Positions 9,733-20,605 of a DNA stretch of 41,739 nt are shown here, in pieces; the stretch's first letter is position 1, and every line of letters starts with the position of its first letter. Position numbers and translations under genes: made by a program. The stretch covers positions 1-41,739 of the forward strand of contig SYJG01000538.1 in the NCBI GenBank assembly GCA_005798445.1, read 5' to 3'. The notes below the pieces were generated by a model. The model saw only the letters and a program-made list of their open reading frames with translations, was not told the origin of the DNA and ran no database searches. This stretch comes from Planctomyces sp. (GTDB lineage: Bacteria; Planctomycetota; Planctomycetia; Planctomycetales; Planctomycetaceae).

Positions 9733-10998
9733 ATGACGAATGCCACAACACGACGGAGCGTGATCTTTGCCGGCGGCGGTACCGGCGGGCATTTGTTTCC
9801 CGGCGTCGCGGTTGCTCGCGAGTTACTCGCTCGCGAACCGGACGCGCGAGTGTTGTTCGTCGGATCGCAGAAACCGATTGAACAAGACATCGTCGTCGGC
9901 GCAGGCTTCGAACATGTCGCGTTGCCGTCGGTCTCGCCGTCGCTGAGTCCGACACGCATCGGCTCATCGTTGGTCAACAATTGGCGAGCGTACCGGCAGG
10001 CGTGCACGATCATGACTCGCGAGCGTCCGAGCGTGATCGTCGGACTCGGCGGCTTTGCCAGCGTTCCCCCGGTCCTGGCTGCTTGGCGAGCAAGTGTGCC
10101 GATCGTGCTGCTGGAACAGAACGTCGTCCCCGGCAAGGCGACTCGCTGGTTGAGCCGTTTCGCAGAGGTTGTTTGTCTGCCGTGGAAACAAGCCGCGAAC
10201 GGATTGCCTAGCGTCGTGAAGACGGTTGTGACCGGCAATCCGATCCGTGCTGAGATCGCAGCGCTGGCTGGCGGCCGCGTTTCTCTCCCTCTCCCTTTGG
10301 GAGCGGGCCGGGGTGCGGGACCGCAGGACGAAAGATTTTTCTTACCGGAGAAAAGTGAAGGTAGGGGAGTCAACCGTGACGCCGTCCCTCATCCGGCCTT
10401 CGGCCACCTTCTCCCGGGGGGAGAAGGGGTGGGATCGAGCCGTGAGACTAATTCGATGCTGCTCATCCTCGGCGGCAGTCAGGGAGCGGCATCGCTCAAC
10501 GCTGCCGTGCTTGATGCTCTCGCGACTCTGCAAACCGAACTCACTGGTTGGCGGATCGTGCATCAAACCGGACCGGCTGATTTCGACGCGATTCGTCAGC
10601 GTTATGCCGCGTTGTCGCTGGCGGCCGACGTGCAACCCTTCTTTCGCGACATGGCCGAGCAATACCGCCGCGCCACCTGCGTCATCTCGCGAGCGGGAGC
10701 TACCACGCTGGCCGAACTCGCGTGCGCGGGACTGCCAGCCCTTTTGGTCCCGCTCCCGACCTCGGCTCACGACCACCAGCGTCTCAACGCCCGCCTGTTC
10801 GCCGCCCACTCCGCCGCCCTCGTGGCCGAAACGACCTCGTCCGCCGCCGACTTCTTGCGAGCCTCTCTCGTCCAACTCTTGAGCGATCAGCCTCTACGAC
10901 ACCGACTCCGTCAAAATCTCCTTGCTCTTGCGCAGCCGCAAGCCGCGAGTGCCGTCGTGGAAATCATTCGCGAGCAGTCAAAGCTCTCCCGTGAATAG
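9733..10998 (+). CDS. murG: UDP-GlcNAc:lipid I N-acetylglucosaminyltransferase (MurG) with an in-frame repeat insertion
   Basis: MurG adds GlcNAc to lipid I to make lipid II, the peptidoglycan precursor, at the cytoplasmic face of the membrane. The glycosyltransferase GT28 fold is clear: GGTGGH at residues 15-20, GGFASVPP and LLEQNVVPGKATR in the N-domain, then LLILGGSQGA, and SRAGATTLAELA with PLPTSAHDHQ in the UDP-GlcNAc-binding C-domain. At 421 residues it is about 60 longer than usual. The excess lies between GNPIRAEIAAL and MLLILGGSQGA (residues about 183-241), where a dispersed palindromic repeat is translated. This is the linker just before the second Rossmann domain, so folding may be tolerated. 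The presence of murG supports peptidoglycan synthesis in this organism. Confidence 0.95.
   Translation: MTNATTRRSVIFAGGGTGGHLFPGVAVARELLAREPDARVLFVGSQKPIEQDIVVGAGFEHVALPSVSPSLSPTRIGSSLVNNWRAYRQACTIMTRERPSVIVGLGGFASVPPVLAAWRASVPIVLLEQNVVPGKATRWLSRFAEVVCLPWKQAANGLPSVVKTVVTGNPIRAEIAALAGGRVSLPLPLGAGRGAGPQDERFFLPEKSEGRGVNRDAVPHPAFGHLLPGGEGVGSSRETNSMLLILGGSQGAASLNAAVLDALATLQTELTGWRIVHQTGPADFDAIRQRYAALSLAADVQPFFRDMAEQYRRATCVISRAGATTLAELACAGLPALLVPLPTSAHDHQRLNARLFAAHSAALVAETTSSAADFLRASLVQLLSDQPLRHRLRQNLLALAQPQAASAVVEIIREQSKLSRE
10282..10436. repeat. Palindromic element translated within murG
   Basis: The left arm begins with a pyrimidine-rich CTCCCTCTCCCTTTGGGAG and the right arm ends with CTTCTCCCGGGGGGAGAAGG; the arms pair imperfectly around an A-rich centre. 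The stretch reads as low-complexity peptide (SLPLPLGAGRG, HPAFGHLLPGGEG) and keeps the murG frame open. The type of sequence is normally intergenic. Confidence 0.8.
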
Positions 10999-16911: not shown

Positions 16912-16967
16912 AGCACGACGCGCCAGCGAGTGGAGTTGGTCTGGACCACTCGCTGGCGCGTCGTGCT
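16912..16967. repeat. Palindrome, AGCACGACGCGC family (copy 2)
   Basis: Perfect 22-bp arms at 16912-16933 and 16946-16967, 12-nt loop. The arm differs at one base from the 2476-2500 copy over their shared 21 bp. It ends 7 bp before the stop codon of the isomerase gene and is well placed to act as a transcription or mRNA 3' end. Confidence 0.9.
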
Positions 16968-17886: not shown

Positions 17887-18084
17887 ATGATCAGCCGAGA
17901 ACTCAAACGCAAAGATCGCGTCTGGCAGCAAGATGGCTTCGATCAGATGGTTCGCTGAATTGAGCAGTTCGAGTATTATTGGCGGTACATCGCGGAGAAC
18001 GGGCCGAAGTCTCGGTTTGGGAAAGTAGTACGCGCATTATTCGAAGGCGCGGGAGTCCGGCATTATGAACGCGGATCGCTTTGA
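17887..18084 (+). pseudogene. Relic of a REP-associated (IS200-like) transposase
   Basis: The frame beginning ISRELKRKDRVWQQDGFDQMVR is stopped by a TGA at 17956-17958, then goes on in the same frame with IEQFEYYWRYIAENGPKS to a second stop at 18082-18084. The phrase xWQQDxFDxxVR followed by an aromatic-rich segment and YIxENPxK is the C-terminal signature of REP-associated tyrosine transposases. Only this end survives; the HUH catalytic part is missing. It lies between the isomerase and the DUF1549 gene. The match is by memory of the family and is moderately secure. Confidence 0.55.
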
Positions 18085-18157
18085 GCATTGGGCGTTGGAG
18101 AATGTTCGGTATGTCACGCGGAGCGTTGACGGCTACTTAGCCATCGCGCTAAGCGTG

Positions 18158-20605
18158 ATGAGCCGAACGCTTTTGACCGCATCGCTACTTATCACAATCT
18201 CCTCATCGCCCATAACCGCCGACGAACTGCATTGGTCCTTCCGCAAGATCACTCGTCCGACTCCGCCGCGTGTTCGGAAAGCCGATTGGCCGCGAAACGG
18301 CAGCGACTCGTTCGTGCTCGCGAGTTTGGAGAAAGAGAACGTCGCGCCGTCGCCGGATGCCGACCGCGTCACGTTGATTCGGCGAGTCACGCTCGACTTG
18401 ATCGGACTGCCGCCGACGCCGGAGGAGGTCGCGGAGTTCGTCCACGACGAGCAACCCGACGCTTACGAGCGGCTGGTGGATCGGCTGCTCGCGTCGCCAC
18501 ATTACGGGGAGCGGTGGGCTCGGCCGTGGCTCGATCTGTGTCATTACGGCGACAGCGACGGACATCTGACCGATCAGTTACGCCCGGTCGCCTGGCGCTA
18601 TCGCGATTGGCTCACGCGAATGCTCAACGACAACCTGCCGTTTGATGAGTTCACGGTGCGGCAGATTGCGGGAGACCTCTTGACTCCAGGCGAGCCGGGG
18701 GGGGTCAGCCCCCGGACATCCGCGAACACTCCAACTCCTCCGGGGGCTGACGCCCCCCGGCTCGCCGAAGATCGATTTAATTTCGACCGCGTCCTCGGCA
18801 CGGGCTTCCTCCGGCAGACGCTCAGCAATCGCGAAGGCGGAGCGGACCTCGAAGAGTTCCGCGTCGCTCAGATCGTGGATCGCACGTCGATGGTCGGCAC
18901 GATTTGGCTTGGCCTGACCGTGGGCTGTGCGAGGTGTCACGATCACAAGTACGACCCGCTGACTCAGGCCGAGTTCTTCCGGATGTTCGCCTTCTTCGAT
19001 GACGCCGACGAGGTCAACATCGACGCGCCGCTGCCGGACGAAGTCGCCAGCTATCAACGCTCGCGGCCGGAGTACGAACGGCGACGACGCGAAGTCGTCG
19101 AGCCGTTTCGCACGGGGCTGACCGAACTGCAAAAACAGTGGGAGACGAAGGCTCTGTACGCAGCGGCGCATCCGGGCGAAGACCATGTTTGGGATCGGCA
19201 GTGGGAAGTCCTCGGCCTAATCTGGGGCGGCCACTTGGGCGAAGGACAACTTGAAGGCTGCGAGATCGTGCGTCTTCCGTGGGACAAACGAACGCAGCGG
19301 CAGCAAGACGACTGGCTCGACTACTTCTTGGCTCACGGTTCGATCGTGGATGCGAAGAAGTTCGCCGAACTGAAGCTGCCCGAACTGCAACAGAAGCTCA
19401 TCGCGTTGAAGAAGGAGTTTCCAGCCGCTCACGCGACGCGCGCTCCGGTGATGCAAGCGGCATTCGCTCCGCGTCAGACCTATATCCACGAACGGGGCGA
19501 ATTCCGCAGTCGAGGTGCGGACGTTTCGCCGGAGATCCCGGCCTGCGTTCGGCGCGGGTCTCCCGACCCCGCCGCTTCGACCGACCGCAGGTCTCCCAAA
19601 TCCGAGGAGACCTTCGGTCCAACGTCAGTGCGGGGTCAGGAGACCCGCGCACAGCGCGACGCACCGCGTCTCGCACTCGCGCGCTGGCTGGTCTCGCCCG
19701 ACAACACGCTGACCACTCGCGTGACCGCCAACCGGATGTGGCAAGAATTCTTCGGTCGCGGCCTCGTCGTAACGTCCGACGACTTCGGTACGAAAGGCAA
19801 TCCGCCGTCGCATCCGGAGTTGCTCGATTGGCTGGCCGCGGAGTTCGTAGGTCAGGCTTCCCAACCTGACCCGGAGCGCGATGAAACTCTGGGAAGCAAC
19901 CGAGTCGGCCAAGGAAGGCCGACCTACGGCTGGGACATCAAACGCATGCACCGACAGATTGTCACCTCGGCAACGTATCGGCAATCGTCATGTCCGCGAG
20001 AGGAACTCGCGACGCGCGATCCAAACAACGTGTTGCTTGCCCGGCAGAACAGCTTGCGAGTTCCGGCCGAGACCGTGCGTGACTCGGCGCTCGCGGTCAG
20101 TGGATTGCTCAGCCGAAAGCTCGGCGGGCCGAGCGTCTTTCCGCCGCAGCACGAGCGGGTCACGATGGAAGCATTCGGCAGCAATTCGTGGAAGACCAGC
20201 GAAGGAGCGGATCGGTATCGGCGCGGCCTCTACACGTTCATCCTGCGAACCTCGCCGTTCGCGCAGGCGATCACGTTCGATGCTCCGCCGCCGGTCGATG
20301 TCTGCACTCGCCGCGACCGATCCAACACGCCGCTGCAAGCGCTGACTCTGCTCAACGACCCGGTCTTCGGCGAGATGGCCACCGCGCTCTCCGAACGAGT
20401 CCGTCGTGAAGGGGGAGTGAGCGATCAAGACCGTCTGCGATTCGCCTGGAAAATCTGCTTCGGCCGATCCGGTACGGAAGCCGAGCTCGCCCGATTGCAG
20501 CAATACTTCAATTTTCAACGAGACACGAACAAAGACGAGTCAGCCGCCTGGACCAACTTGGCCAGCGTGTTGCTCAACCTGCATGAGTTCATCACACGGG
20601 ATTGA
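18158..20605 (+). CDS. DUF1549/DUF1553 (PSCyt2-PSD1) protein with three translated palindromic insertions
   Basis: 815 residues from ATG 18158, where a signal peptide begins ([17 protein letters not shown]). The usual N-terminal PSCyt1 haem domain is absent; DUF1549 starts almost at once ([10 protein letters not shown]). DUF1549 includes [25 protein letters not shown] and the [11 protein letters not shown] motif, a possible haem or metal site. DUF1553 includes [41 protein letters not shown], and the C-terminal [13 protein letters not shown]. Three stretches unlike the family, at residues about 178-203, 466-498 and 564-590, are in-frame palindromic repeats. The gene is followed by a DUF1501 gene, the usual partner. 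The pair is abundant in planctomycetes and exported; its biochemical function is not established. Confidence 0.88.
18689..18766. repeat. Palindrome translated in the DUF1549 domain, GGCGAGCCGGGGGG family
   Basis: 28-bp arms at 18689-18716 and 18739-18766 with one mismatch, 22-nt loop. Read in frame they give [10 protein letters not shown] and [10 protein letters not shown]. The right arm is identical over all 28 bases to 28099-28126 near another gene. The insertion lies between AGDLL and the VLGTGF segment, normally a short loop. Confidence 0.9.
19553..19649. repeat. Nested palindrome translated in the linker to DUF1553, CGCGGGTCTCCCGACC family
   Basis: Outer 20-bp arms (19553-19572, 19630-19649) with one mismatch enclose an inner pair of 14 bp (starting GACCGCAGGTCTCC, one mismatch). 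The peptide includes RRGSPDPA and GQETRAQRD. The outer arm is closely related to the intergenic element at 13776-13910. Confidence 0.85.
19847..19927. repeat. Palindrome translated in DUF1553, GTAGGT family
   Basis: Ends GTAGGTCAGGCTTCC (19847-19861) and GGAAGGCCGACCTAC (19913-19927) pair with two mismatches. The peptide (GQASQPDPE...GQGRPTY) is inserted between DWLAAEFV and GWDIKRMH, two pieces that adjoin directly in ordinary relatives. Confidence 0.8.

What the first reader, a model, noticed from the sequence alone, without database searches (positions are those of the whole stretch)
10282..10436. A dispersed palindromic repeat translated inside murG
MurG here has about 60 extra residues exactly between two conserved blocks (GNPIRAEIAAL and MLLILGGSQGA). 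The DNA of the excess is a palindrome-forming, pyrimidine/purine-rich repeat of a kind normally intergenic, and the frame stays open through it. An essential cell-wall enzyme thus seems to carry a coding selfish repeat, as the Rickettsia palindromic elements do, but with an unrelated sequence.
Basis: partly seen in the sequence, partly recalled or inferred. Interest (0 to 1): 0.85.

Follow-up and report, generated by a model that had tools for sequence, protein, structure and literature searches.

The report
Mobile-like DNA palindromes translated inside MurG
In an uncultured planctomycete genus, the short hinge between the two halves of the cell-wall enzyme MurG has been filled, in frame, by scattered DNA palindromes, and different species carry different palindromes at that same hinge.

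Summary
MurG (window 9733-10998) has 58 residues between its two domains where P. aeruginosa MurG has 7. Their DNA is a two-unit palindromic repeat with at least 39 other places in the same genome.

The larger finding is comparative. In 11 of 12 genomes of the genus this linker holds a palindrome, but not the same one: four families (e1 2, e2 3, e3 5, e4 1) that do not match each other and are dispersed. G008 has the short linker. The Lhr helicase linker varies likewise. AlaRS has a clean e2 insert in this genome only; 11 of 11 relatives are empty. AlphaFold2 leaves the MurG insert unstructured between two well-folded domains.

Best reading: REP/RPE-like repeats at high load that survive in genes only in frame and at tolerant linkers or loops. 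That kind is known (PMC3733652). New are recurrent colonisation of one linker by several families, and arms that diverge less than their surroundings. 'Essential' is unproven: murG was not essential in a cultured planctomycete (PMC10632474).

The parts
9733..10998 (+). murG open frame (421 codons), both glycosyltransferase-28 domains present
   Evidence: dN/dS 0.16-0.21 over the two domains in the six genus pairs computed
10282..10455 (+). extra segment, residues 184-241, interdomain linker; pLDDT < 50 at residues 188-236 in the model
10285..10322 (+). left palindromic unit of element e1 (CTCCCTCTCCC...GGGACC)
10323..10383 (+). spacer between the two units; variable among dispersed copies, partly shared with the MurG insert of G006
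10384..10427 (+). right palindromic unit of element e1 (GTCCCTCATCCGGCC...GGGAGAAGG), the commonest matching part, similar to repeats on Rhizobiaceae plasmids
18029..20602 (+). second gene with palindromes read in frame: open frame with PSCyt2 (DUF1549) and PSD1 (DUF1553)
18689..18766 (+). element e2, in frame (residues 220-245), inside the PSCyt2 match 93-327
19545..19657 (+). element e6, in frame (residues 505-542); dispersed in the own genome
19847..19927 (+). GTAG...CTAC palindrome-like stretch, in frame in the same gene; copy number not tested
   Evidence: read from the sequence

Best explanation
The murG insert is a copy of e1, a dispersed REP/RPE-like palindromic repeat (two inverted units with a spacer). 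It most likely entered the short hinge between the two MurG domains before G000 and G006 parted, and is translated as a disordered linker. These genomes carry many such palindromes of several families. Copies that land in genes survive only where their length keeps the frame, they read without a stop, and the protein tolerates a floppy insert, that is, in linkers and surface turns. The MurG hinge is such a place and has been hit, or its element exchanged, several times, so that lineages show different families. Shown: position, copy number, open frame, families, empty sites, purifying selection on MurG. Inferred: translation, mobility, neutrality. Unknown: which enzyme moves e1, e2 and e3; the GTAG-headed e4 is the one best explained by RAYT transposases.
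For: Dispersed e1 copies. Insert exactly between domains, pLDDT < 50 at 188-236, mean 87.1, pTM 0.86. In the genus 11 of 12 MurG linkers carry a palindrome, 1 of 12 (G008) is short; e2, e3 and e4 have matches in 12 of 12 genomes each, e1 in 8 of 12; the families do not match each other at E <= 0.01. Five changes of element state on the MurG tree built without the linker columns. One frame runs through the linker in 12 of 12 (G008 is cut later by its contig end). dN/dS 0.16-0.21. G006 is a separate MAG (contig length equal to CAMDPK010000256.1) with an alignable insert sharing part of the spacer. Lhr linker differs between species likewise. AlaRS: insert in 1 of 12, empty in 11 of 12. Other in-frame copies with Pfam matches on both sides: kinase/FG-GAP, ABC transporter, PPDK-like, cyclase-like, cytochrome.
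Against: No proteomic or transcript evidence; the genome is a MAG, 90.45% complete, 5.34% contaminated. No target-site duplication was recognised at the AlaRS empty site. Of 12 RAYT loci looked at (of 91 matches) none has a convincing e1 beside it, and G011 has 103 e3 matches but no PF01797 match. e1 was not found in 4 of 12 genus genomes. Palindrome arms diverge less than 4-fold sites, which plain neutrality after insertion does not predict.
Confidence: 0.76

Rival explanations
1. A hairpin at the domain boundary is selected, for example as an mRNA structure that slows ribosomes between the two MurG domains; the element families are interchangeable suppliers of that hairpin.
For: Four families at one spot in 11 of 12 genomes. 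Copies of e2, e3 and e4 fold at z -7.7 to -11.3, the e1 stretch at z -2.27. In five e3 inserts 88% of stem cells pair against 28-43% for slid controls, and 4 of 20 pairs changed on both sides against 0-1. e1 units differ at 4 of 82 sites against 19 of 61 in the spacer; e2 arms at 4, 0 and 4 of 58 against 9, 9 and 8 of 27 in the linker flank.
Against: G008 and 17 of 18 other-genus loci read have no such insert. The AlaRS insert (by reading, a turn) and e2 inside the PSCyt2 match are not at domain boundaries. In one search there are only five rows; 30 of 500 shuffles reach 4 double-changed pairs, and the number of further pair types (5) is below the shuffle mean (6.5). G005's 5' arm is identical over 22 nt to the arm of another palindrome in this window, 16912-16933, so exchange between dispersed copies can mimic compensation.
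Confidence: 0.14
2. Insertion is targeted: the elements recognise a sequence or structure in the linker DNA, or a resident palindrome attracts or is exchanged for another. This could hold together with the best explanation.
For: Different families fall in the same short linker of MurG and different repeats in that of Lhr. If insertion were uniform over about 380 residues, three further insertions in the same 26-residue stretch have p about 3e-4. e3 occurs in both subclades, e2 and e1 in one each, as if replacing it (weak forks).
Against: The same bias follows from loss of insertions elsewhere in the protein. G010 has a second insert just outside the linker. No shared target or duplication was recognised.
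Confidence: 0.25
3. Assembly or binning artefact: the repeat caused two contigs' murG halves to be joined, or the gene is a pseudogene.
For: The genome is a MAG of 553 contigs and several repeat copies lie near contig ends; Lhr of G004 breaks at this very place.
Against: G006, a separate MAG, has an alignable insert with a partly shared spacer in an 84%-identical MurG. Both halves are MurG in one open frame, under purifying selection, and the domains fold.
Confidence: 0.04
4. Ordinary linker length variation with low-complexity sequence, unrelated to any repeat.
For: The linker is variable in length and sequence across the family.
Against: Significant dispersed copies for all four families.
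Confidence: 0.02

Closest known systems
Rickettsia palindromic elements (RPEs)
   Same: Dispersed palindromes found between genes and in frame inside conserved genes (general description recalled; PMC3733652 section 15, read, mentions RPE-1, RPE-4 and RPE-6 inside R. conorii genes).
   Different: Other phylum; here several families occur at one linker across a genus. Sequence relation not tested.
Intragenic GTAG and CGTC REPs (PMC3733652)
   Same: In-frame palindromes in conserved genes; the authors already suggest they may be neutral because in flexible linkers or loops (section 15 and part 1 of section 17 read; passages). e4 begins with (T)GTAG and ends with CTAC(A); a stretch in the second window gene begins GTAG and ends CTAC.
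   Different: e1, e2 and e3 do not begin with GTAG. MurG, alanyl and peptidoglycan do not occur in that paper's main text as held.
Enterobacterial RU-1/2/3 small mobile sequences (PMC2759123)
   Same: Small mobile repeats with open frames found inside annotated genes (abstract and outline seen).
   Different: MITE-like, enterobacterial; the abstract mentions no recurrent colonisation of one linker.
Rhizobiaceae plasmid repeats, perhaps RIME
   Same: The right unit of e1 matches 169 plasmid records (Sinorhizobium 80, Rhizobium 60, Shinella 20); the 15 listed are at 89-94% over most of the 45-nt query. The copy in Rhizobium sp. B21/90 lies between two genes.
   Different: There the unit sits in an outer palindrome of its own (by reading); here it is paired with a left unit across a spacer. 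RIME (Rhizobium-specific intergenic mosaic elements) is named in passages of PMC2245857; that these hits are RIME is my recollection, not checked.

Membership tests
Rickettsia palindromic elements | palindromic, dispersed, multi-copy | tested here: met
Rickettsia palindromic elements | in-frame insertion inside conserved genes as well as elsewhere | tested here: met
   other families:
Rickettsia palindromic elements | sequence homology to an RPE family | not tested
   no RPE sequence was compared; so it is not filed as an RPE
GTAG REP / REPIN with RAYT | GTAG head at one end (e1, e2, e3) | tested here: not met
   e1, e2 and e3 begin with other bases
GTAG REP / REPIN with RAYT | unpaired GTAG head at one end (e4) | tested here: inconclusive
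   e4 begins with (T)GTAG, but in the folded dimer those bases pair with the CTAC end
GTAG REP / REPIN with RAYT | Y1 transposase (PF01797) in the genome | tested here: met
   11 of 12 genus genomes; 8 matches in the own genome; the control set rings in 5 of 14 genomes
GTAG REP / REPIN with RAYT | elements flanking the transposase gene | tested here: inconclusive
   12 of 91 matches looked at: e4 beside one (L121, 51 nt, E 7.8e-7), 14-18 nt e3 hits near L125, a 16-nt e1 hit near L117 at E 0.039
MITE | terminal inverted repeats plus target-site duplication | tested here: inconclusive
   inverted units present; no clear duplication at the AlaRS empty site
RIME | shared unit sequence | tested here: inconclusive
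   right unit matches Rhizobiaceae plasmid repeats; whether those are RIME was not checked
MurG (TIGR01133) | score above curated cut-off | tested here: met
   266.1 bits against 250.25
Rfam families | match above gathering score in 10100-10600 | tested here: not met
   five sub-threshold matches only

The most novel reading that the evidence does not exclude
The MurG and Lhr hinges are standing landing pads for repeat elements: one palindrome is exchanged for another over evolution, and its pairing is upheld at the DNA or RNA level (by conversion between dispersed copies, by template switching, or by selection for a hairpin between domains) while the peptide is free to change. A translated linker would then be inherited as a nucleic-acid structure, not as a protein sequence.
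Probability: 0.22. Interest if true: 0.85.

Novelty: new variant of a known kind. Interest (0 to 1): 0.62.

Why it matters
It gives a natural experiment on where proteins tolerate random insertions of about 20-60 residues: one hinge, twelve related genomes, four kinds of insert and an empty reference. It extends translated palindromic repeats to an uncultured planctomycete genus with several families in one genome, and offers a route by which bacterial linkers lengthen and disordered regions arise from mobile-like DNA. It also warns that gene models in such genomes carry repeat-derived peptides, which create matches between unrelated proteins (such matches appeared).

Tried and rejected
Assembly chimera: set aside because an independent MAG has an alignable insert with part of its spacer. 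Known RNA family: nothing reached a gathering score. 49-nt pieces holding each e1 unit are no more stable than shuffles; only the longer stretch stands out. RAYT as mover of e1: 12 of 91 matches looked at, no convincing e1. G030 (other genus) has a linker of 95 residues, not tested for repeats. The family-wide scan (157 of 170 genomes matched) was not turned into linker lengths. No paper naming this MurG case was found in eight full-text searches; the library lacks most subscription papers, so this is weak. PMC12306157 was seen in passages only and has no 'planctomyc'.

An early idea that e1 arms show no synonymous change was wrong: one search counts about 2 synonymous and 4 nonsynonymous differences over 28 arm codons. 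What is kept is only that the units diverge less than 4-fold sites (p 2.9e-5) and than the spacer; against an overall MurG divergence of 0.12 it is weak for e1 (p 0.025). An Lhr 'palindrome' in G001 did not hold: the one pairing tried gave 11 of 20, while G007 gave 34 of 34 and G002 31 of 31.

Left out of counts: spanning frames not scanned in Pfam are one of L006, two of L140, and in the window the frames at 2363, 16703, 18581 (-), 19255, 19401 (-), 26426, 26449 (-) and 31612 (-). The e3 place C100:2794 was not examined apart. Assignment of the MurG inserts of G002, G003, G005 and G011 to e3, and of G006 to e1, rests on alignment, not on their being listed in the copy searches. Match counts of palindromes include both strands, so they exceed the number of places.

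Full report
WHAT IS THERE. The open frame 9733-10998 is a MurG: TIGR01133 at 266.1 bits, with glycosyltransferase-28 domains at residues 10-147 and 242-386. Against P. aeruginosa MurG (3S2U) the alignment stops at query residue 183 / chain 174 and resumes at 242 / 182, so 58 residues replace 7. AlphaFold2 on an alignment of 30 MurGs gives mean pLDDT 87.1 and pTM 0.86, with one stretch under 50, residues 188-236. Foldseek's best three PDB matches are MurG structures 3S2U, 1F0K and 1NLM.

THE REPEAT. The DNA holds a left unit (10285-10322), a spacer and a right unit (10384-10427). The stretch 10270-10450 folds into one long hairpin (-89.7 kcal/mol, z -2.27). In the window's own genome 40 places, itself included, match at E <= 3.3e-10; 91 candidates existed and 40 were scored. 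With a typed two-unit query 25 of 59 genomes match, 8 of 12 in the genus, G004 only weakly; G001, G007, G008 and G010 have none. The right unit also matches 169 plasmid records: Sinorhizobium 80, Rhizobium 60, Shinella 20. The copy in Rhizobium sp. B21/90 is intergenic. I recall such rhizobial repeats as RIME; that was not checked.

OTHER SPECIES, OTHER PALINDROMES. In the 12 genomes of the genus (G000, G006, G011, G005, G003, G009, G004, G002, G007, G010, G008, G001) the stretch from TGNP to GGSQG has 80, 89, 45, 51, 45, 51, 49, 45, 49, 49, 26 and 44 residues. Reading and aligning the DNA: e1 in G000 and G006; e2 (GGCGAGCCGGGCGGCG...) in G004, G007, G010; e3 (AACCCGAAGCGTCAGCGAGGG...) in G002, G003, G005, G009, G011; e4 (TGTAGGACGGGCGCTCC...) in G001; none in G008, whose MurG is cut by the contig end further on. 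The families do not match each other at E <= 0.01, apart from the two units of e1. Of 24 other-genus genomes with a MurG match, 18 loci were read: 17 have a short linker and G030 a long one (for L053 the alignment was used, since the pattern hit an earlier GNP). Searches with e2, e3 and e4 found matches at E <= 0.001 in 12 of 12 genus genomes each; numbers vary widely, and e4 has one match in G011 and four in G003. G010 has a second, upstream insert, e5, also with matches in 12 of 12. A MurG tree without the linker groups G008 (none) with G001 (e4) outside the other ten and needs 5 changes of element state; only 3 of 27 inner branches are starred and several forks are open, so other resolutions may need fewer (five states need at least four).

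NOT ONLY MURG. Of 30 e1 loci of the own genome, 16 have an open frame of 150 or more codons across the element. Eight of these 16 have a Pfam match, MurG included. In five the matches lie on both sides: MurG, an Lhr helicase (element about residues 500-553, WH_Lhr 297-462, DEAD_assoc 591-793), a squalene-hopene-cyclase-like protein, a cytochrome, and an AcrB-type transporter (its second stretch is not printed, so one side is inferred). Of 37 e2 and e3 loci of the own genome (22 and 15), 16 have a frame of 200 or more codons across and 9 of these a Pfam match. Two-sided cases are a kinase/FG-GAP protein, alanyl-tRNA synthetase, a fused ABC transporter and a PPDK-like protein. Elements upstream of the first matched domain (for example L002, L021, L027, L149, L156) are ambiguous, since the true start may lie downstream.

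LHR. 10 of 12 genus genomes gave Lhr matches. At the linker G000 and G009 carry e1 in the opposite orientation; G007 and G002 carry other palindromes with perfect arms of 34 and 31 nt; G003, G006 and G010 carry short tandem repeats (GCAAATTGC or GCAAAGT type); G001 has a long linker in which the one pairing tried failed (11 of 20); G004 is broken by contig ends there; G005 has a short linker. Copy numbers of these were not tested.

ALARS. 12 of 12 genomes matched. G000 alone has a 32-residue e2 insert; 11 of 11 others read LTADG or a close variant without it. It is a clean empty site, by reading a turn between strands rather than a domain boundary. No target duplication was clear.

THE WINDOW AGAIN. 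19 inverted-repeat pairs with arms of 16 nt or more lie in the 41.7 kb. The PSCyt2/PSD1 gene at 18029-20602 is open through e2 (18689-18766) and e6 (19545-19657), and by reading also through a GTAG...CTAC stretch at 19847-19927. e6 is dispersed in the own genome: 87 matches counting both strands, 40 of 134 candidates scored.

HOW THE ARMS EVOLVE. The e1 inserts of G000 and G006 differ at 2 of 38 and 2 of 44 sites in the units and at 19 of 61 in the spacer; 4-fold sites of the MurG domains differ at 43 of 200. For e2 the arms differ at 4, 0 and 4 of 58 sites in the three pairs, the linker flank at 9, 9 and 8 of 27, and 4-fold sites by 17-18%. In five e3 inserts 88 of 100 stem cells pair; 4 of 20 pairs have changes on both sides, against 0-1 in slid controls and a shuffle mean of 2.3 (30 of 500 reach 4); further pair types are not in excess (5 against 6.5). 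With five rows this is suggestive only. G005's 5' arm is identical over 22 nt to the arm of a palindrome elsewhere in this window (16912-16933), which favours exchange between dispersed copies.

SELECTION AND ESSENTIALITY. The MurG domains are under purifying selection: dN/dS 0.16-0.21 in the six pairs computed. In Planctopirus limnophila murABCDEFGJ scored as not essential (PMC10632474, passages seen), so essentiality here is open. Alanyl-tRNA synthetase is the stronger case for an indispensable enzyme (general knowledge).

MECHANISM. Shown: dispersed families, in-frame open inserts, empty and differently filled sites, intact domains. Inferred: transposition or copying of the elements, purging of harmful insertions, translation. 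Y1 transposases (PF01797) exist in 11 of 12 genomes; of 12 loci looked at, only e4 was convincingly beside one (L121). The GTAG-headed e4 therefore fits the known REP/RAYT scheme best; movers of e1, e2 and e3 are unknown. That REPs inside genes may sit harmlessly in linkers or loops was already proposed in PMC3733652 (section 15 and part 1 of section 17 read). New here, as far as the searches reach, is that one linker is filled by several families across a genus.

Noticed in passing
window 18029-20602 (+): PSCyt2/PSD1 gene with two, probably three, different palindromic elements read through in frame.
   Followed up: partly
window 10384-10427: The right unit of e1 resembles repeats on Rhizobium, Sinorhizobium and Shinella plasmids, a different phylum; the 15 listed hits are 89-94% identical.
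   Followed up: partly
G000 AlaRS, L137:899-3217 (-): Alanyl-tRNA synthetase with a 32-residue e2 insert in this genome only; 11 of 11 relatives have the empty site.
   Followed up: yes
L040 (G010 murG): A second insert (e5, GGGTGGC...GCCACCC) just before the VTGNPIR motif.
   Followed up: partly
L100, L106, L107 (Lhr linkers of G003, G010, G006): Short tandem repeats of GCAAATTGC or GCAAAGT type fill the same Lhr linker.
   Followed up: no
L043 (G030 murG): A 95-residue MurG linker in another genus, origin not tested.
   Followed up: no
window 1-41739: 19 inverted-repeat pairs in 41.7 kb, five of them with arms over 25 nt and over 90% complementary.
   Followed up: partly
G011 genome: 103 e3 matches (both strands counted) but no PF01797 match, so e3 does not need a resident Y1 transposase now, or the MAG is incomplete.
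   Followed up: no
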